Part shown: positions 980 through 42,000 of the stretch, piece after piece
Layout: the number at the start of each line of letters is the position of its first letter
Position numbering within the stretch: the stretch's first letter is position 1
Assembly (NCBI GenBank): GCA_006384855.1
Contig: VCJN01003587.1
Location: 1 to 64,000, forward strand
From: Tetraselmis striata
Lineage: Eukaryota; Chlorophyta; Chlorodendrophyceae; Chlorodendrales; Chlorodendraceae
DNA length: 64,000 nucleotides
Direction of reading: 5' to 3'
The notes under the pieces: model-generated
Database searches by the model: none
What the model saw: the letters and a program-made list of their open reading frames with translations, nothing else
Told to the model about the DNA's origin: nothing
Made by a program: the position numbers and the translations under genes

Positions 980-1463
980 TGTTGGACCCAGAGTACCCCG
1001 GTACCCTGAATCCGCTTTTTCTCTCTGTGAAATCCGCATTTTTTCTGGCTGCCGTACATGTGCCTAAATTGGACCGTATGGCAGCAGTACGGCACCAAAG
1101 CATGGCACCTAGGCATCTATGCCAGTTGGCCTTCTTAGACGGAGAGGTGTCCGTCCCAATCGACACCTAGCCGGCTGGTATAAATTGCCAGCCTCGGCTC
1201 CTTGTAATTCAGTCAACTGCTTTTCCAGAAATATTCCGACTCACCCTTTCTCTCTCGTGACAGTGCCACTCAGCCATCACCACGGCGACAGCGACTACCA
1301 TTCGTCCATCGCCCACGGCTCATAGCAGCCCTTTGCCTTCCCAGTTTGCATCTCGCTTGCTGGCACTCGACGTGATTCGACGCCTACACGCCGACTCTCG
1401 CCGACTCTCTTTCCATCAGTGACAGTGCCACTCAGCCATCACTTCGACAATCTCCCTCCGACA
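980..1463 (+). repeat. 5' LTR of the copia element
   Basis: This 484-base repeat starts TGTTGG and ends CCGACA, a short imperfect inverted repeat typical of LTR ends. A TATA box (TATAAAT, 1179-1185) is the probable Pol II promoter. A TGTAA (1203-1207), the chlorophyte poly(A) motif, lies about 20 bases further on. The copy at 7846-8328 differs by roughly seven changes. Confidence 0.95.
1179..1185 (+). promoter_or_regulatory. TATA box in the 5' LTR
   Basis: TATAAAT is conserved in both LTRs (also 8044-8050), about 475 bases upstream of the gag start at 1654. Its promoter role is inferred from position. Confidence 0.6.
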
Positions 1464-1653: not shown

Positions 1654-3461
1654 ATGTCTACCAGCATCAACACCGGCATGATGAACACCCCCCTGGCCAA
1701 TCTGGCTCGGCAGAGTGCGATCAAGACCGACCCTGGCCACGCCCCACCACCTCCTGACGTCCGTGATGATACCAGTTTTGACGACGCCTTCAGCATGGAC
1801 GGGGCGTCAGACAATGACTCCAAGGACATCCCGCATATCAAGCCAGCTGCAGTGAAGCCGACACTCGACCTCAACAACGTCCCCATCTGGGACAGCACCA
1901 TCTCTACACGGGACAACGCTCAAGCCATCAAGATCGCTCTCGGCAGCGCTGGCTACTTGGACACCACCAAGGGCAAAGGCACCCGTCAGGAGCAAATGAT
2001 CCTTCTGGCCGCCATACGCCACGCAACAGCTCATTATCCCATGTCAACAGCATCAGCATGGATTCTAGGAAGTGTGGATATACAGCATGGAAGGCTCTTC
2101 TTACTGAGCTCCAGGGCTCAGCCATGGAGGAGCGTAAGCGCTTGGAGGAAGAGATCACAACGGGCCAGTTCCCGAATGAGCCGGTTCAGGTGTATGTTCG
2201 GCGCTACCAGAACCTCTGGAATCTGCTGAACAAGGCACATGGCCAGTGGGCCTTCGAGTACGTGGCTGCCAACTACCTCATCCCAGCAGGCCTTCACCCA
2301 GACTACGATCATATCGTCGACACCACCACCTCGGCGGCCACTGTCAACGAGAAGCTGGCAACCATCATCAGCGCCGGACAAAACACGGAGGCGCGCAAGC
2401 GTCAGCGTCAGCAGCGCGTCCGCGCGTGCCCGCCCAACCTCAATTCCTACAGCCCCAGGGACCCGCAGCACACCACCGGGCCCAACGTTGTCTGCAGGCG
2501 GTGTGACCGTCCGGGCCATACCCAGCAGCAGTGTGTGGCCAGGCGCCATGCCAACGGCCTGCGTATCCTGGATGACACCACGCCGACCAGCACCATGACC
2601 AAACCTCGCTATGACCGCCATCAGCGCGCGCCTGCGGAGCGTCGCGTCAACACCAACTATGGCCACCACCCGCGCGACAACTACCGCCATCAGGCACCGC
2701 CAGGCCAGCATTTCTACAACGACAACCGCAACAATCATGACAGGCCCCAGCGGCAGCAGCGTTGGACAAACCAGGGCGGCAACGACGTCATCAACAGCGT
2801 CATCAACGACGTCATCAACAGCGTCATCAACAGCCGGTCGGCTTCGTCTCCCCGGCCGGACGTCAGCACCCGGGTCATCAACAGGCCAGCGACACCTTCA
2901 CCCAGCGGCCGACGGGACACCAGGAGGCCTACCCGCTCGTGGGAGTGTCCCCATCAGCACAACACCACAGCAGCCTGCCCATCATGCTCACCTGCACCAC
3001 TGCCGCCCCAGGAGGGGCGGACACCGGAGCACAGGAGGGGGAGGGGGAGGACAGCGCGGAGGATGACTTACATGACCCTTGGCACGTCCCCTACTCCGAC
3101 TCTTATGCCGACTTCGAGTCCCCGTTCTCACACTCATGGCATGTTCACCGCTCCCGCCCTCACCCCGACGCCTTCCCGATCTTCGATACCCCCGACATCC
3201 CCCCCCCCCCCCCCCCCCGTTGGAACGTTTACTCCCATCCCTACTCCCTCGATCCCCCTCCACCTATTCGACATCAATTGGCAACGTCCCCACCCCGTCC
3301 CCACCCCAGCCCAACCCCTATTCCTCACTACACCCACATTCCCCGCCTCAGCGGCGTTGGCATCCCACATTCTTCATGCGGAGCAAGGCGCCCTGCGTGG
3401 CGACCCGCCACCAACACTACCGCTCCTCACCGCTGCGCCGATGCTCCCGCTGCCAACCTCT
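1654..3461 (+). pseudogene. gag region of the copia element (frameshifted)
   Basis: The likely start is ATG 1654 (MSTSINTG...). The reading begins in one frame, and the gag core resumes in another frame near 2045-2060, where the TAWKALL stretch typical of copia gag begins. Because this switch lies upstream of the zinc knuckle, it looks like a mutation and not a programmed gag-pol shift. A CX2CX4HX4C zinc knuckle (CRRCDRPGHTQQQC) lies at 2493-2534 and would bind the RNA genome in the particle. A Pro/Arg/Ser-rich linker follows. In it a second frame (2762-3511) is also open and has a more protein-like acidic composition, so the true frame is uncertain between about 2900 and the long C run at 3199-3218. 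The function, packaging the element's RNA, is inferred from the family. Confidence 0.8.
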
Positions 3462-4410
3462 CTGGTCATCGACCATCTCTTTTCGCCCTGCCATGGCCCA
3501 TCGGCATCTGAAGTAGAGGCTCTGGTAGAATACGGCTTCATCATCCACAAGATCACCGGCGCCGACCCGTCGCCCGAGGCTCGTACTATGTGGACGCATC
3601 GCCTACATGTCATCAGCGACAAGTACCCGGACCGTCTGCCCCCTTCAGCATTTCAGGACTGTCATGCCAGGACCCCCATGGACGTCAACAACATCACCAT
3701 CGCGGAGCTGGAGACCCTGCGTCCGGTCACCCTCATCGTGTCAGGCCCACCGTGTCAACCATGGTCGCGCGCTGGCTCACGCCTTGGCTGGCAGGACCAT
3801 CGCTCTCGGGCCTTTGCTTCCGTCATCAGTTTCATCCGTTTCTACCTGACTACACAGCCCACACCGGTGCGCTACATTGTGGAGATTGTTCCGGGCGCGC
3901 TGGACTTCCCTGAGATACTCTCCTCACTTGGCACCGGCAACATCATGCCTGCGACCGCCTGCGGTTCGGCGGCTCACCGCGACACCCTCCTGTGGACCAA
4001 TATCGCTTCGCAAACCGACGTCCAGGACTACATCAACAACATAAACGCCATCGAGCTCACCGACCCCGGCCCCTTCGCGTGGGACCTCTGTATCTCCGAA
4101 TTCCCCCACTTTACTCCGGTGGTGACAACTGACTACTTTCCGAAGTTCGTCGCCCGCCCCGGCTCATACGCTTTTCGCATGCAAACCAACGGTCAGCCGG
4201 GCACTGGCATGGTCTACGAACATGATGGCCCCTGGTTCTGGGCAGACAACGGCAGATGGTGCGAACCCCCTGCAGCTCTACGCGCTCGCGCCATGGGCTT
4301 CACCTTGGATGATCTGCCCACATCTCACCTTTCCGAGGCGACACTGCGCAAACTTCTCGGCGGGCCCATCGACCTCAACGTCATGCGCAACTACATCAAG
4401 GCTGTCTCGG
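3462..4410 (+). CDS. C5 cytosine DNA methyltransferase domain embedded in the retrotransposon
   Basis: About 316 residues inside the 2058-4658 open frame read as a C5 DNA methyltransferase, which adds a methyl group to cytosine using S-adenosylmethionine. The clearest mark is motif IV, GPPCQPWSRAG (3744-3776), with the catalytic Cys codon at 3753-3755. Upstream are a degenerate motif I region (DHLFSPCHG, near 3471) and a PMDV motif III-like stretch. Downstream are VEIVPG in the place of motif VI (ENV), AAHRDTLLWTN (about 3970-4003) as motif VIII, and LRKLLGGPIDLNVMRNY (4341-4394) as motif X. The HR...LLWTN and LLG...VMR patterns resemble the DNMT3/DRM type more than DNMT1, which is my inference. 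The G-rich motif I is poor, so cofactor binding may be impaired. No stop or frameshift lies inside the domain. It sits between gag and protease, so it would be made as part of the polyprotein. Confidence 0.88.
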
Positions 4411-4429
4411 GCGCCGCCCCTTCCCCAGC

Positions 4430-7400
4430 CGTCATCACTGTCTGCCACACGTCATACGGCACCTTCATCACCAGCGATGGAGAGGCATGGGTGCTCATCG
4501 ACTCGGGAGCATCCTCTCACGTCAACGCCCACCGCACCGACTACATCTACTACATGGACATTCCTGCGGCGGAGCAATTTATGGTGGCTGGGCCGTTTCG
4601 GGCAACCGGCAGTCGGCATCGGCACCACGCTGGGGCCAACACTAGACATCACAGGTAGGCCACATACCATTGTGGCACGAGACTGTTACCATACTCCTGA
4701 CATCACCTCCAGTGTCGGTCTCACCAACATCAACCGCCTCCTCAGCACCCATCAACTCAGCAAGCATGGCTACTCTTTCTACTTCAGCCGCCTCCTCAAC
4801 AGCATGATCACCCCAGATGGCGCAGTCATCCACCTTCAGCCCTACCCCGGCACGACAGGCATGTACGGCATCAAGCTCCTTCCCATCCGCGATCCGTCTC
4901 ATGGGGTCATGGCACTGCCCTCTCTACAGGCCCCCTACTCTCTGTGGCATCTTCGACTTTGTCATCGCTGCGCGCGCCACATGGAGCTCACCCAACAACA
5001 TGTCATCGGCATCCCGAAACTCGGATCGGCACCGGAGGCCATATGCCCAGCGTGCATTCAGGCCAAATCCCACCAGCAGTCAGTCAACCGTCAGCCCTTT
5101 CCACGCGCGGAGGCACCGTACATGCTCGTGGTCATCGACGACTGGAAGGGACCTTGTCCGTCGGTCACTGGCGCGCAGCATGTCTTCGGCGCGGTGGATT
5201 CCTACACTGGAGTAAAGGTAGCAATCACCATGGGCACCAAGGACGAGGCCGTCCGCGCCGTCCATCAACTTCATGCGGCGGTTCTCGGCATGGGTCACAC
5301 CGTTCAACGCATACGTGCCGATCGCAGCGCGGTTTATACCGGCTCTCCGTTTCGTCAAGCATGTTCCGACCTCAACATCGCGCTGGAGTTTACCGCGTCC
5401 CACTCTCATCATCATGCAGGCCTGGCGGAGCGCTCTTTCCGCACTATCGGTGAGTGTGCCCAAGCCATGCTCCTCCACGCCGGCCTCGACCGCACCTTCA
5501 GGGACTGGGCGTATCTTCACGCTGTCTATCTCTGCAACCGCCAGTGGAGCTTGTCCGTCAACGCCATACCTTCCACGCTGATGACCGGTCGCAAGCCCGA
5601 CCTCGCCAACCTGCATGTTTTCGGCTGTGTGGCCTGGGTCAACATACCTGTGACTATGCGGGCAGCCAAGGGAAAAATGACACCTAAATCTTGGCCAGGC
5701 ATCTACCTTGGCCACCATGAGGACTCCGCCGGCTACCGCATATACAACCCGGCTACCAGGCGCGAAACGGTTACACGCGATGTCATCTTTGACGAGGTGA
5801 CACGACCCTTCTCCAGCACACCGGCACTCTCTATGCAAGTCTTCCAGCTCCCCGACGATGACCACCTGATGGATGAGCCGCAACTCTTGGACCAGCAGGA
5901 GGGGCCCCACGCGCCACCTCCCATGCCCCCACCCATGCCACCATCAGCGGCGCTTGCCTCCGCGCAGGAGGGCCCCCCACCTCCGCAGCCAGAAGGGACG
6001 TATCTTCCGCGTCATCAGGAGGGGGACGCCACAGCACTACCAACTCCTCACTCCAGTGGATCAGCGCACATATCTTCTCCTTATGTCGACCTCAGCGACT
6101 ACCACCCCAAGCTGGTAGCATCCGCCATCGTGGAGGTTGTGTGCCCCTACCCGGCGCAGATGGCCGCCCTCGCCCTGCTAGTACCCACTGTCCGCGTGTC
6201 CAAGGCGCCGCGCAACTACAAGGAGGCCATCTCCAGCAATCACCCCGATGACTGGAAACAGTCCATGGACCGAGAGATCGTCTCTATCACCAAGATGGAG
6301 ACCTTTGTTTGGATCAGCATTCCTGAGCTTCGCCGTGACAACCCGTCAGCAATCATCATACAGACGGCGTGGGCCTTCGCGGAGAAACAAGACAAGGATG
6401 GCAACCTCATCAAGCGCAAGGCCAGAGTGGTTGTTCGCGGCGATCAACTTACTGCCGGCGAGAACTATGATGACACAAAGACCTATGCCCCAGTCGTCAG
6501 TTTCATCGCCTTGCGCACCACTATTGCTCTCACAATTCAACTTGACTGGGAGCTGTACCAGTTCGACATCACCTGTGCTTTCCTCAACGCTAACCTCGAT
6601 GAAGATGTCTACGTCTACCCCCCCCCGGCTACGGCCGCAAGGATCAGGCTTGGAAACTCGTTAAGGCACTCTATGGCCTGCCGCAGGCACCCAAGGCATG
6701 GTTTCTGCGCTTTTCTTCTTTTCTCCGTGACTTCGGCTTCGTCAGCTCCGAGTGCGATCCAGGCGTATGGACGCTGCTCGCGGTCGATGGATCGCTGCTG
6801 GCCATCCTATACGTCTACGTCGATGACATCATGCTGGCTACCTCCCCGTCGTCCGACATCCGGGAGCGTTTTCAGACTTCTCTCTTCTCTACGTTTGATG
6901 CGACTACTGAAGGCCTATGCACCTGGCTTCTTGGCATGGCCATTGACCGCAAGCCGGGGGGCGTGCTCCACCTCCATTAGGAGAAATACATCAACGACAT
7001 CCTGACTACCTTCAGCATGGCGGCGTGCGCGCCTCGCCGCCTACCATGCACACCGGATACCAATTTTCATGACCCTACAGGCACGCCCCTCGACACCAAA
7101 CTCTTTCCCTATCCCAATCTTGTTGGTAGCCTTATCTGGCTGGCTGTGGCATCACGCCCGGACATTGCGTTCGTGGTTGGCCGCCTGTGCGCCTACATGG
7201 CGTCCCCCACCGAGCGTCACTGGCAGATAGCCGTATCGGTGTTGCGCTACCTCAAGGGCACCCCCAAACATGGCCTCATTTTCCGGAAGCAACCGGACAA
7301 CGAGGCACCTGACTTCCTCTTTTTTGTGGACGCTGACTGGGCAGCCTTCGTGCCCAAACGCCGCTCCACTACCGGCTATCTTGCCCTGGTGCACGGCACC

Positions 7401-7838
7401 CGAGTCGCCTACCGCGCGCAAGTTCAGAAGAGCGTGGCCCTGTCTACTGCCGAGGCGGAGTTCGTGGCGCTCTGCATGGCCTACAAATGTCTGGCGTTTA
7501 TTCGCGTTCTTCTGCGCCAGCTCCACCACGCCACCACTGACCCGGTACGGGTATGCGAGGACAATCAAGCGTGCATCGTTCAGGTGAAGCATGGTATGAT
7601 TACAGGCGCGCAACGCCACATTGACCTCAAGTTTCAGTATGCAGCCCAACTCTGCCAAGACGGCGTCATCGACATGCACTACACGCCTACCGCAGACCAG
7701 CTCGCCGATTTCTTCACTAAGGCGCTGCCGTTGACTACCTTTCTTCATTTCCGCGCTTTCCTGATGGGGTCATCCGAGGAGCCATGTGTTGCGCCTCTGC
7801 CGCCATCAGTCCTGCGCCCGCGGGATTCCACAGGATGA
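4430..7838 (+). pseudogene. pol region: protease, integrase, reverse transcriptase, RNase H (broken)
   Basis: The aspartic protease has DSGASSH at 4500-4520; its C-terminal half continues in another frame from about 4620. A GAG-pre-integrase zinc-binding segment (WHLRLCH, then CPAC) starts near 4942. Integrase shows the D, D, E triad: VVIDDW near 5128, RADRS near 5308 and LAERS near 5422. Reverse transcriptase starts near 6220. The frame shifts at the nine-C run 6618-6626, then ALYGLPQAP and the catalytic YVDD (about 6810-6830) follow. A TAG at 6978-6980 stands where the family has Gln (HQEKY). RNase H (7321-7730) keeps VDADW, STAEAEF, CEDNQAC and the final DQLADFFTKAL. The reading ends at 7838, just before the polypurine tract. 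The parts would act together in cDNA synthesis and insertion, but this copy has three breaks. Confidence 0.93.
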
Positions 7839-7845: not shown

Positions 7846-8328
7846 TGTTGGACCCAGAGTGCCCCGGTACCCTGAATCCGCTTTTTCTCTCTGTGAAATC
7901 CGCATTTTTCTGGCTGCCGTACATGTGCCTAAATTGGACCGTATGGCAGCAGTACGGCACCAAAGCATGGCACCTAGGCATCTTTGCCAGTTGGCCTTCT
8001 TAGACGGAGAGGTGTCCGTCCTAATTGACACCTTGCCGGCTGGTATAAATTGCCAGCCTCGGCTCCTTGTAATTCAGTCAACTGCTTTTCCAGAAATATT
8101 CCGACTCACCCTTTCTCTCTCGTGACAGTGCCACTCAGCCATCACCACGGCGACAGCGACTACCATTCGTCCATCGCCCACGGCTCATAGCAGCCCTTTG
8201 CCTTCCCAGTTTGCATCTCGCTTGCTGGCACTCGACGTGATTCGACGCATACACGCCGACTCTCGCCGACTCTCTTTCCATCAGTGACAGTGCCACTCAG
8301 CCATCACTTCGACAATCTCCCTCCGACA
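7846..8328 (+). repeat. 3' LTR of the copia element
   Basis: This 483-base repeat starts TGTTGG, ends CCGACA and has TATAAAT at 8044-8050. It differs from the 5' LTR at scattered single bases (for example AGTGCCCC for AGTACCCC) and by one T in a T run. Confidence 0.95.
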
Positions 8329-8937: not shown

Positions 8938-9010
8938 TGTAAGGATATGTACCACACAAATCCCCATGTGGGTACCCAGTGCCTGGTGCGTTTTGCGCAG
9001 TATCCTTACA
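8938..9010 (+). repeat. 73-base repeat with inverted ends, copy 1
   Basis: It starts TGTAAGGATA and ends TATCCTTACA, so it has its own 10-base perfect inverted ends. It is identical to 9174-9246. Confidence 0.9.
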
Positions 9011-9173: not shown

Positions 9174-9246
9174 TGTAAGGATATGTACCACACAAATCCC
9201 CATGTGGGTACCCAGTGCCTGGTGCGTTTTGCGCAGTATCCTTACA
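9174..9246 (+). repeat. 73-base repeat with inverted ends, copy 2
   Basis: It is a perfect copy of 8938-9010. The 163 bases between the copies contain a second Pol III B-box-like sequence, GGGTTCGATCCC (about 9037-9048). Confidence 0.9.
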
Positions 9247-39000: not shown

Positions 39001-42000
39001 ATGGGCAGCCCGAGTGGAGCGAGGATTCAGCCCGGGGATTATTAAGAATTATTGAGACATCCGGCGCCCACTCCCGTCTAAACTTGGCGAGTAGCAAGGG
39101 AAGGGGATCGCGTCGCCTGGAGGGGGGAGGGGGGGGGGGGGGGGGGGGGGGGGTTCATACCTTCAGGCTTTCCATCAGCCCGACGTTTGGCGCGGAGAAC
39201 AGAAACGTGTCCACCTGCGGTTGCATCATCCGAAGGCAGTTTCAGGCTCAACCGAGCGTCCCGACAAATCAACGGCGCACACCAGGCGACAGCTATCGTG
39301 CAGCGAAGCAGCGGCTGCGGAAACGCGCCGGTAAGCGTGCAGACGTCGGTGCGAGATTTTGCGGTCTTCGCGCGTCGATGGGTCGGCCCAGCCGAGGCAA
39401 GCACGCACCTGCCCCCTCTCGAAGTCGTTCTTGCTGCTGTCCAGGCTCTGCGTGCCGGTGTCTCCAAGCTCGCCGTATACCACGCAGCTGACGTCGCTGT
39501 CCGTGCCGGCTCCTCGGCAGTCGGTGGTATGCACCGTCACGCGGTACTGGACCAGCTCACCGTCCTCGCCGCCCAAGCCCTGCGCGGACGGCTCCAGCGT
39601 GGCGCGACACCCTTCCATCCCCGACACCTTGGACTTTTCCAACCAACGGTCGCACGGGAAGTAGTAGGTGCGGTCTTGCCCCGGATGGAAAATCTCCACC
39701 TGCAGGCAAGCAGAACCTCGTTCAAGCACAGAGAAACAGAGAGAGAGGGCCTTCTCAATGTAACAAGGAATACCAGAATGTCGATTCAGTGATTTGTGAT
39801 GCTTGCTATTGTTTATTTCGCGAGAGTACATCTACGGTAGTGCATATATATACGGTAGCACAACACGACACATGAACATGACAAACTCGACCACCCACAA
39901 GCCGGCTGCCCGGCGCTCTATGCATCGCCTCCCCATAACCTGTTTGTGAGGCACCGAAGTCGGGGACGCAACCGCCTCGACCCTCCGAAGCCGCCCAGGC
40001 AACCCTACCTGCTGCAGATGCCACGCGGAGCCCGCCCAGGAGTTGTCATGGCCGATGACAATGCGCCGAATGTCCCCCACGTCCATGTCCTCCACGTCGA
40101 ACTCGTCCTCCTGCCCTCGCTCGAAGTTGTTTTTCTGAGAAAACAGCGCCGAATTGACGGTCAGTGGCGCCAATGAGCCTAATTCCCGTGCTGAGGAACA
40201 CTCGTCGTGACAGGCGATGGAAACACACTGGGGGGCTTGGCGCACCCTGTCATCGAGCTGGCGGGGGCCAAACTCCCCTTTATCGCCGATCACTGTGATC
40301 TCAATCTGCGTTTTTGAACACGCAGTTTATCGACAGCAATTTCATCGCCGAGACATCCCGGCCAGTCCATATGGACAAAACGGTGCCCCGCTGCGTGTTC
40401 CGCGTGAAATATCTTTGGCAGGGTGGGCAGTCGCACCCGTGCGTCGGTGCCTGCGCCTTTGATGTCGCTTGTGAAGGTACGGATGGTGTAGTTGCATTGC
40501 GTGCCACCCGCTTCCTCACTTGGGAGCAACTCGTGCTCCACTGCACGGAAGTGGGGAGGGCAGTATAAACAGAGCCGGTTGGGTGTATACATGGGGGGAG
40601 GGGGGGGGGGGGGGGGGGCAAAGCAAACAGGCGTCACAGGTGACAAAACAGCCCTGCGCACCAGCCACAATGGTGCGGGGAGTGAAGGGGAGGGGGGGGG
40701 GGGGGGGGGGGGGCAGCTCACAGCCATGCTCCTTGTCGATCCAGCCACGGAACGGAAACACCTTGATGTCGCCGCTGCCAATATCGGCGACCTCGATGCG
40801 GTCCAGATGCCACGCCGCACCGAGCCCTTTCCCATTGCTGATGACCCTCACCTTCCGGAGCTCCCCGACTTGCACTTGCTTGAGGAAGAAGGCATCCGCC
40901 TGCAGACATCGGGTGAGGGTGTCATTCATGCGCGTGCTGAATGAAAACGGCGCACGATCCCGGGGCAGGGGTCAAAGGGCCGCACCCGGCCGCGCTCAAA
41001 GTCATTGTGGGACGAGTCCAGCTTGAGGGGCTCGGTCTGGCCAGCGTCGCCAACCAAGACGATGCTGATGTCACTGTCCGTGCCGCCGCCCTTCACATCG
41101 CTCGTGTGGACTGTCACCCGCAGGTTGCCGCCGCCCCCCTGTCCCGGATGGAGCGTCCGCTTGCAGCCATCCAGCCCCGCCTCTTTGCTCTTTTGCAGCC
41201 ACTCGCCGCAGGGGAACATGTACGTCTTGCGCTGGAAGGGCTGCACAACCTCCACCTGCGTGACAGGCAGGGCGCGATTCCGCTGAGGCTGGCGGACTTG
41301 CGGATGTGACACCCGCCTGCAGCAAGTCCCCATGCTGACACGAGCTTCCCGTACGATAAGCTGCCCTCTATACCATATCCTCGCCGCCCGTCCCCGCTCC
41401 CAAGGAGTTCCTTCTCCGCACCTGCTGTAGATGCCACGCCGCACCCATGCCCTTGTTGTCATGGCCGACCAGAATGTGCGTGATGTCCCCCACATCCACA
41501 CCCGGCACGTCAAAGGTGTCCTTCTCGCCGCGCTCAAAGCTGGGGAGGGATTGGGTATTCGGCATGGCCGCGCAAATTCAGCGCCCATCCGGCAAGGGGA
41601 GTGCGACCGCACAAAGGGGTGGACAGGCAGCACGGAGTCTGTGGCGGTGAGAGTCAGCGCGGCGCACTTTTTGGCACTGTTCTCCAGCTTGGTCTGCCCA
41701 ATGAAGCCCTGATCCCCATGGATCTCAATAAACACATTGGCGTCCGTGCCGGCGCCGCGCACGTCGGTGGTGTACACCGAAACCCGGTAGTCCTGCAGGC
41801 GCACCGGGCGGCGGGCAAAGGGGCAGGCATTCTGTCAGAACACGCCGCCGCCCTAGCTAGATGCCTACCCAAGCAACGGGTCAAGTTGCACTCAGCGGAC
41901 CAAACGCCCAGAGGACGCTTGGGGCTCTATGATAAACTGGGCGTGGGGCCGGAGAAGCCGCGAAGTAGCCGGATAGTATAGTTGGCAGGGCAGTTGGGGG

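What the first reader, a model, noticed from the sequence alone, without database searches (positions are those of the whole stretch)
3462..4410. A copia retrotransposon that carries its own DNA cytosine methyltransferase
The domain with GPPCQPWSRAG and matching motifs VIII and X lies between the gag zinc knuckle and the DSGASSH protease, in the same reading frame as both. A mobile element that brings a C5 methyltransferase could methylate its own copies or the host genome, to avoid silencing or to mark insertion sites. I recall reports of retrotransposons in algae and dinoflagellates that captured DNMT genes, but I cannot say whether this lineage is among them. The position, inside gag-pol upstream of protease, means it would be cut out of a polyprotein and could be packaged in the particle.
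Basis: partly seen in the sequence, partly recalled or inferred. Interest (0 to 1): 0.92.

Follow-up and report, generated by a model that had tools for sequence, protein, structure and literature searches.

The report
Copia retrotransposons carrying a DNA methyltransferase
A family of jumping genes in a green alga carries, inside its own polyprotein, a DNA-methylating enzyme that selection has kept intact, so these genomic parasites may write epigenetic marks themselves.

Summary
Window 3450-4430 encodes a C5 cytosine methyltransferase (MTase) domain (PF00145, 2e-8) in one open frame with the gag zinc knuckle and DSGASSH protease of a Ty1/Copia element (LTRs 980-1463, 7846-8328). It is no one-off: 124 matches in the same 224-Mb genome, 29 near full-length at 82% identity or more. 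Host inferred from gene labels: Tetraselmis striata, a green alga. The window copy is broken; its motif VI reads EIV where the other 37 of 38 aligned rows read ENV. Changes shared between copies are mostly synonymous (pN/pS 0.10 MTase, 0.14 protease-integrase side, 0.25 gag side), so the enzyme is maintained. At least three more Copia families carry such an MTase, in the same slot in the two read, as do one family of undetermined class and one LINE-like ORF. The six MTases form one clade (100/100), nearest to those of algal Gypsy elements (111.6 bits against 56.7 for DNMT3A). Retrotransposon DNMTs are known since 2018 from DIRS, LINE and Gypsy elements. Verdict: new variant of a known kind. 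Activity, target and benefit are untested.

The parts
980..1463 (+). 5' LTR (TG...CA)
   Evidence: 98.4% identical to the 3' LTR over 489 aligned bases
1654..2229 (+). start of gag; frame ends at a stop at 2229 in this copy
   Evidence: ORF 1423-2229 with ATG at 1654; other copies continue in one frame
2493..2534 (+). gag CCHC zinc knuckle
   Evidence: sequence; Pfam below cut-off in this copy
3450..4430 (+). DNMT3-like C5 cytosine methyltransferase domain
   Evidence: PF00145 2e-8; 124 matches in the genome
3753..3755 (+). catalytic Cys codon of motif IV (PPCQ)
   Evidence: Cys in 36 of 38 aligned rows
3882..3890 (+). motif VI, EIV in this copy
   Evidence: ENV in the other 37 of 38 aligned rows
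3972..4001 (+). AHRDTLLWTN, aligned with AHRARYFWGN of DNMT3A
4500..4520 (+). protease motif DSGASSH
   Evidence: same frame as the MTase
5113..5406 (+). integrase core (rve)
   Evidence: Pfam 7e-7, slightly under cut-off
6355..6977 (+). Copia reverse transcriptase (RVT_2), split over two frames
   Evidence: Pfam 6.4e-14 up to 6603; ORF 6603-6980
6981..7835 (+). end of RT and RNase H region, after a stop codon
   Evidence: ORF 6981-7838; family RT query matches 6615-7640
7846..8328 (+). 3' LTR
   Evidence: 5-bp flanks TGTTA and TGTTT agree in 4 of 5 bases

Best explanation
This is a degenerate member of a recently mobile Ty1/Copia family whose single gag-pol frame includes a DNMT3-like C5 methyltransferase between gag and protease. 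Shown: the domain is widespread in the family, keeps its catalytic motifs, and is under purifying selection similar to that on the protease-integrase side. Related MTases sit in at least three more Copia families, one family of undetermined class and one LINE-like ORF of the same genome. Inferred: it is made as part of the polyprotein, cut out by the element's protease or kept beside gag in the particle, and methylates the element's new cDNA there, so that the copy integrates already marked and either passes as native DNA or is shielded from sensors or deaminases. Rough odds: a real, selected C5 MTase of a Copia element 0.95; active on DNA 0.75; own cDNA the main target 0.45.
For: Domain and frame. 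124 matches, 29 of them near full-length at 82% identity or more. Cys in 36 of 38 and ENV in 37 of 38 aligned rows (L040 not counted; two loci appear twice). Shared-change pN/pS 0.10 in the MTase against 0.56 for private changes, Fisher p 0.0008, 20 copies. Recent mobility: LTR pairs 99.8-100% identical and perfect 5-bp duplications in the two main-family copies read in full. Same slot in two other Copia families. DNMT3A is the best solved-structure match of profiles of the Copia and Gypsy MTases. Precedent: related Symbiodinium DIRS enzymes methylate CG de novo in yeast (PMC5890265 section 10).
Against: With 17 copies the MTase contrast weakens (0.15 against 0.44, p 0.12), and older copies pairwise give a median dN/dS of 0.57. 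No excess of C-to-T at CpG: 34 of 638 CpG sites against 145 of 1800 other C sites, if anything fewer (p 0.027), and CpG observed/expected is 0.89, like the rest of the window (0.90). An offshoot with a dead MTase remnant still moves, and a Copia family with 1561-aa frames that seems to lack the domain is abundant, so the MTase is not needed for mobility as such. KnitGypsy-Dnmt3 gave no activity in yeast (inconclusive). Queried alone, the domain hits HaeIII MTase (21.1 bits) a little above DNMT3B (15.3). No expression, structure or activity data.
Confidence: 0.6

Rival explanations
1. The MTase acts on RNA in the particle (element RNA or primer tRNA) rather than on DNA.
For: It lies next to gag, which binds RNA; DNMT2 structures also match the profile (34.1 bits); de Mendoza et al. 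raise RNA methylation for SymbioLINE. Lack of CpG decay fits.
Against: Profiles match DNMT3A far better than DNMT2 (66.9 against 34.1 bits); with the Gypsy-only profile no DNMT2 passes 0.001.
Confidence: 0.15
2. The MTase works in trans to silence or restrain sibling copies or competing elements (self-limitation or competition), lowering harm to the host.
For: Many families with an MTase coexist in one genome; the idea is raised in PMC5890265.
Against: Young near-identical copies of several families show continuing spread; no methylation data.
Confidence: 0.2
3. The domain is kept for a non-catalytic role (nucleic-acid binding or particle structure).
For: The dead-MTase offshoot keeps two thirds of the domain in open frames and is mobile.
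Against: Cys and ENV are nearly invariant in the main family, and the dead remnant shows no constraint (shared pN/pS 0.85; 5 synonymous, 13 nonsynonymous).
Confidence: 0.08
4. A one-off insertion of an MTase gene into a dead element, or an assembly artefact.
For: The window copy alone is broken.
Against: Many copies on separate contigs, perfect target duplications in six copies, and the same slot in other Copia families.
Confidence: 0.01

Closest known systems
KnitGypsy-Dnmt3 of Klebsormidium nitens (PMC5890265)
   Same: LTR retrotransposon with a DNMT3-type domain in its polyprotein, multi-copy, catalytic residues conserved, purifying selection (Ka/Ks below 0.2)
   Different: Gypsy, not Copia; domain reported in the Pol ORF; charophyte, not chlorophyte. 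Its sequence was not compared here
SymbioDIRS-Dnmt3 and SymbioLINE-Dnmt of Symbiodinium (PMC5890265)
   Same: retroelement-borne DNMTs, hundreds of copies, selected; the DIRS enzymes are active on CG in yeast
   Different: DIRS and LINE in dinoflagellates; the paper states that Copia there lacks DNMT. Sequences not compared here
Gypsy polyproteins with MTase, many with a PHD finger, of Chlamydomonas eustigma, Haematococcus lacustris and metagenomes
   Same: nearest MTase relatives found; 111.6 bits for the window family's domain with a Gypsy-only profile
   Different: Gypsy RT and integrase; 23-27% identity in the alignment; FECQDLS-type motif IV; MTase after the RT in the one with both domains mapped (P0063)
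Animal DNMT3A/3B catalytic domain
   Same: best solved-structure match of the profiles; motif order not rearranged
   Different: remote; no ADD or PWWP seen in the Copia frames scanned

Membership tests
C5 cytosine methyltransferase (PF00145) | Pfam match above curated cut-off | tested here: met
   34.5 bits against 22
C5 cytosine methyltransferase (PF00145) | catalytic PC motif and ENV (motif names recalled) | tested here: met
   family: Cys in 36 of 38 rows, ENV in 37 of 38; window copy EIV
C5 cytosine methyltransferase (PF00145) | methyl transfer to C5 of cytosine | not testable with these tools
   needs an assay
DNMT3 | best match to DNMT3 among known classes | tested here: inconclusive
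   met with profiles of Copia plus Gypsy or Gypsy alone; not met with the single domain, where HaeIII MTase ranks first
DNMT3 | groups with host DNMT3 genes in a tree | not tested
   no host DNMT3 sequences were retrieved
DRM (plant rearranged DNMT3) | circularly permuted motif order | tested here: not met
   motifs in the order I, IV, VI, VIII, X in the alignment
Ty1/Copia LTR retrotransposon | LTRs, 5-bp duplication, integrase before RVT_2 reverse transcriptase | tested here: met
   the window copy's own flanks agree in 4 of 5 bases
Known retrotransposon-DNMT families of de Mendoza et al. 2018 | element class Gypsy, DIRS or LINE | tested here: not met
   Copia domains
Known retrotransposon-DNMT families of de Mendoza et al. 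2018 | DNMT inside an element ORF, multi-copy, under purifying selection | tested here: met

The most novel reading that the evidence does not exclude
One DNMT3-like MTase lineage lives mainly in mobile elements of green algae and has moved as a module between element classes (Gypsy, Copia, LINE-like), settling between gag and protease in Copia, without each class taking it afresh from a host gene. In Tetraselmis it equips at least six retroelement families, so much of that genome's C5-MTase coding sequence is element-borne.
Probability: 0.4. Interest if true: 0.85.

Novelty: new variant of a known kind. Interest (0 to 1): 0.73.

Why it matters
Cytosine methylation is a classic host weapon against retrotransposons. 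Here retrotransposons hold such an enzyme and selection keeps it intact. The genome appears to hold its own controls: Copia families with a conserved MTase, an offshoot with a dead MTase remnant that still moves, and an abundant Copia family that seems to have none. Comparing methylation of young copies of the three would test directly what an element-borne DNMT is for, which the 2018 paper left open. The shared MTase clade across element classes also asks whether such enzymes pass between parasites rather than from the host each time.

Tried and rejected
Chance or one-off insertion: rejected. Dead enzyme, suggested by EIV: true of this copy, rejected for the family. Recent bacterial or viral origin: bacterial loci matched over at most about 150 residues (11 loci), viral contigs over at most about 116 (4 loci); the three bacterial and two viral ORFs put in a tree fell together, apart from the retroelement MTases. 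Copia MTase nested inside Gypsy MTases: drawn so in the trees, but Gypsy monophyly is not rejected (AU p 0.18) and branches are long; left open. CpG decay as a trace of methylation: not found.

Not done: a tree with host DNMT1/3/5/CMT, because no such sequences were retrieved. The three protein searches are spent: all 30 hits are Tetstr1 models, and the domain columns of the 120 listed of 169 show retroelement domains. The structure job was unfinished at the last poll, so there is no fold comparison. The search of the host genome with the Gypsy MTase piece alone did not complete; with the whole Gypsy protein only its later, integrase-side part matched. Host DNMT genes were not resolved. Element class of family E was not determined.

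Replaced results: mis-oriented minus-strand loci and is replaced. One search is replaced, which drops L008 (414 private differences). L003 was dropped as the same locus as L036. L040, a diverged copy (LTRs 91.7% identical, flanks not matching), was counted in neither group. L039's duplication could not be read.

Full report
WHAT IS THERE. The window (G000:C2885:1-64000) holds a Ty1/Copia element with LTRs 980-1463 and 7846-8328, 98.4% identical. The frame 1818-4658 holds the CCHC knuckle, the MTase domain 3450-4430 and the protease motif DSGASSH. Pfam gives DNA_methylase at 2e-8, and in the next frame a retroviral SH3-like domain and RVT_2 above cut-off, with rve and gag_pre-integrase just under theirs. 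The copy is degenerate: frame changes interrupt gag, the protease region and RT, and there is one stop. Its motif VI reads EIV.

HOST. Four gene models 96-99% identical to the family's domain are named jgi/Tetstr1 TSEL_ (P0002, P0003, P0005, P0006); all 30 hits carry the same label. I read this as Tetraselmis striata, a chlorophyte; the species name is my reading of the label.

FAMILY. P0001 has 124 matches in the genome, a lower bound by the tool's own note; 29 cover at least 320 of 327 residues at 82% identity or more, several in open frames over 2000 aa. Of the first 50 rows of the RT search (113 matches), 33 have an MTase match within 6 kb upstream on the same strand and 17 do not; the 17 were not read and may be fragments, interrupted copies or cases missed by the search. 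The two main-family copies read in full have LTR pairs 99.8 and 100% identical and perfect 5-bp duplications, so the family has moved recently.

SELECTION. The catalytic Cys is present in 36 of 38 aligned rows and ENV in 37 of 38, the exception being the window copy (two loci appear twice; L040 not counted). Against one open copy, dN/dS is 0.08-0.33 for L001-L021 where dS is above zero, 0.24-0.46 for L022-L030 and 0.40-0.65 for the still more diverged L038, L039 and L041-L044. Median pairwise values are 0.22 among young copies and 0.57 among older ones, which include decay after insertion. I therefore split changes into shared (two or more copies, made mostly while replicating) and private (mostly decay). 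In 20 copies shared pN/pS is 0.10 in the MTase (17 synonymous, 5 nonsynonymous), 0.14 on the protease-integrase side (29, 13) and 0.25 on the gag side (30, 24); private values are 0.56, 0.78 and 0.58. The MTase contrast has p 0.0008. With three more diverged copies left out (17 copies) shared values are 0.15, 0.11 and 0.41, and the MTase contrast has p 0.12. The MTase is constrained about as much as the protease-integrase part.

A DEAD-MTASE OFFSHOOT. A second set of matches covers mostly residues 3-211 at about 59-75% identity. Five such copies read in full have frames of 1203-1236 aa. Compared with the main family, the one mapped (L037) keeps gag, the knuckle and about two thirds of the MTase, then fragments of the later polyprotein and the LTR; the stretch with the protease and integrase core is missing. 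All 11 copies examined lack the Glu of ENV and 10 of 11 lack the Cys. P0022 has a similar fusion with PPCQ kept and ENV changed, a plausible intermediate. LTR pairs of the five are 98.6-100% identical and the four tested have perfect duplications, so they move, presumably with help from the main family. Their MTase remnant shows no constraint (shared pN/pS 0.85 from 5 synonymous and 13 nonsynonymous changes; private 0.56). This is a natural control for the selection result.

MORE FAMILIES. The PF00145 search of the genome gave 123 matches, many in long frames outside the window family. L076 and L077 are other Copia families with CCHC, MTase, protease motif, integrase and RVT_2 in one frame and the MTase in the same slot; L078 is a shortened relative of L076. 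Family F has seven 2147-aa frames with both an MTase match and a Copia RT match of 64-65% identity to the L076 RT; the order inside them was not read, but the MTase lies upstream of the RT by position. Family E has MTase matches in frames of up to 2164 aa, class not determined. A 3505-aa frame on C2687 has an MTase, followed by RNase H (1.4e-11) and preceded by a PCIF1-type domain (2e-15); I call it LINE-like from the look of the sequence, as no RT was detected in the parts read. MTase identity between families is 29-51%; RT identity of the window family to L076 and L077 is 37-38%. A Copia family with many 1561-aa frames (RT 42-43% identical to the window family's, 51% to L076's) did not appear among the MTase matches listed; I take it to lack the domain, but its gag-protease region was not read and those lists are capped. 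It is closer in RT to L076 than the window family is. So either the MTase was gained once and lost there, or gained more than once; open.

ORIGIN. Outside the host, the full-length query found two proteins: Gypsy-type polyproteins. Searching with one of them gave 169 proteins, 120 listed, with Gypsy-type domains and many with PHD fingers; named ones come from Chlamydomonas eustigma and Haematococcus lacustris. One listed protein is labelled a bacterial MAG (P0095), which I suspect is a mislabelled contig. A profile of 11 Gypsy MTases scores the window family's domain at 111.6 bits, DNMT3A at 56.7, DRM at up to 38.6 and HhaI at 23. The six host families form one clade, 100/100, drawn inside the Gypsy group. 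In the earlier test with three Copia rows Gypsy monophyly is not rejected (AU p 0.18). No host DNMT3 is in these trees, so host capture and transfer between elements are not separated.

MECHANISM. Best reading: an MTase made within gag-pol, packaged, acting on cDNA before integration. Shown: domain, frame, conservation, recent mobility. Inferred: cleavage, packaging, target, benefit. Against: no CpG decay and mobility of elements without a working MTase.

LITERATURE. PMC5890265 (abstract, sections 6, 7, 9, 10, 11 and passages read) founded this kind: DIRS and LINE in Symbiodinium and Gypsy in Klebsormidium; it says that Copia in Symbiodinium lacks a DNMT. PMC12344493 (section 5 and passages) has a sentence naming 'LTR Copia and DIRS' elements 'as previously reported' there; since the cited paper says Gypsy I suspect a slip, but could not check the supplement, and it is a possible prior mention of Copia. 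Full-text searches whose listings showed me no report of a DNMT in a Copia element or in Tetraselmis retrotransposons. Passages seen: PMC9998398, PMC12477816, PMC11453091, PMC6338049; a word search of PMC6317226 found no methyltransferase (138). The library holds only open-licence papers, so absence is not proof.

Noticed in passing
L086, L079, L085 (G000:C2687:17400-24200): A 3505-aa frame holds a PCIF1-type domain (PF12237, 2e-15), a C5 MTase and RNase H (1.4e-11): a LINE-like element with two methyltransferase-type domains. A paper search listing showed none pairing PCIF1 with retrotransposons.
   Followed up: partly
L031-L034, L037, L045-L050: Mobile offshoot of the Copia family with an open 1203-1236-aa frame (five read), truncated MTase remnant and no protease or integrase core; recent insertions.
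   Followed up: yes
G000:C406, C2281, C2398, C438 and others: Abundant near-identical Copia family with 1561-aa frames that seems to lack the MTase: a natural control.
   Followed up: partly
L066-L071: Six stand-alone 325-aa frames matching PF00145 over 1-320 at 143.9-151.3 bits; not linked here to a retroelement, possibly viral.
   Followed up: no
L072 (G000:C2385): 327-aa Dcm-like frame with motifs GGPPCQTYSRA and VPQNRRRMF, unlike the retroelement MTases.
   Followed up: no
20 main-family copies, about 4 kb each: Private changes at CHG sites are more frequent than at CHH or CG (C-to-T 63 of 544, 82 of 1256, 34 of 638), but transversions are raised there too (55, 66, 31), so it may be an alignment or repeat effect.
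   Followed up: no
window 40929-41834, minus strand: Open frame with a PLAT/LH2 domain (4.7e-14).
   Followed up: no
window 8938-9007 and 9176-9245: A stretch of about 70 bases (AAGGATATGTACCACACAAATCCCC...GCAGTATCCTTACA) occurs twice, about 240 bases apart (read).
   Followed up: no
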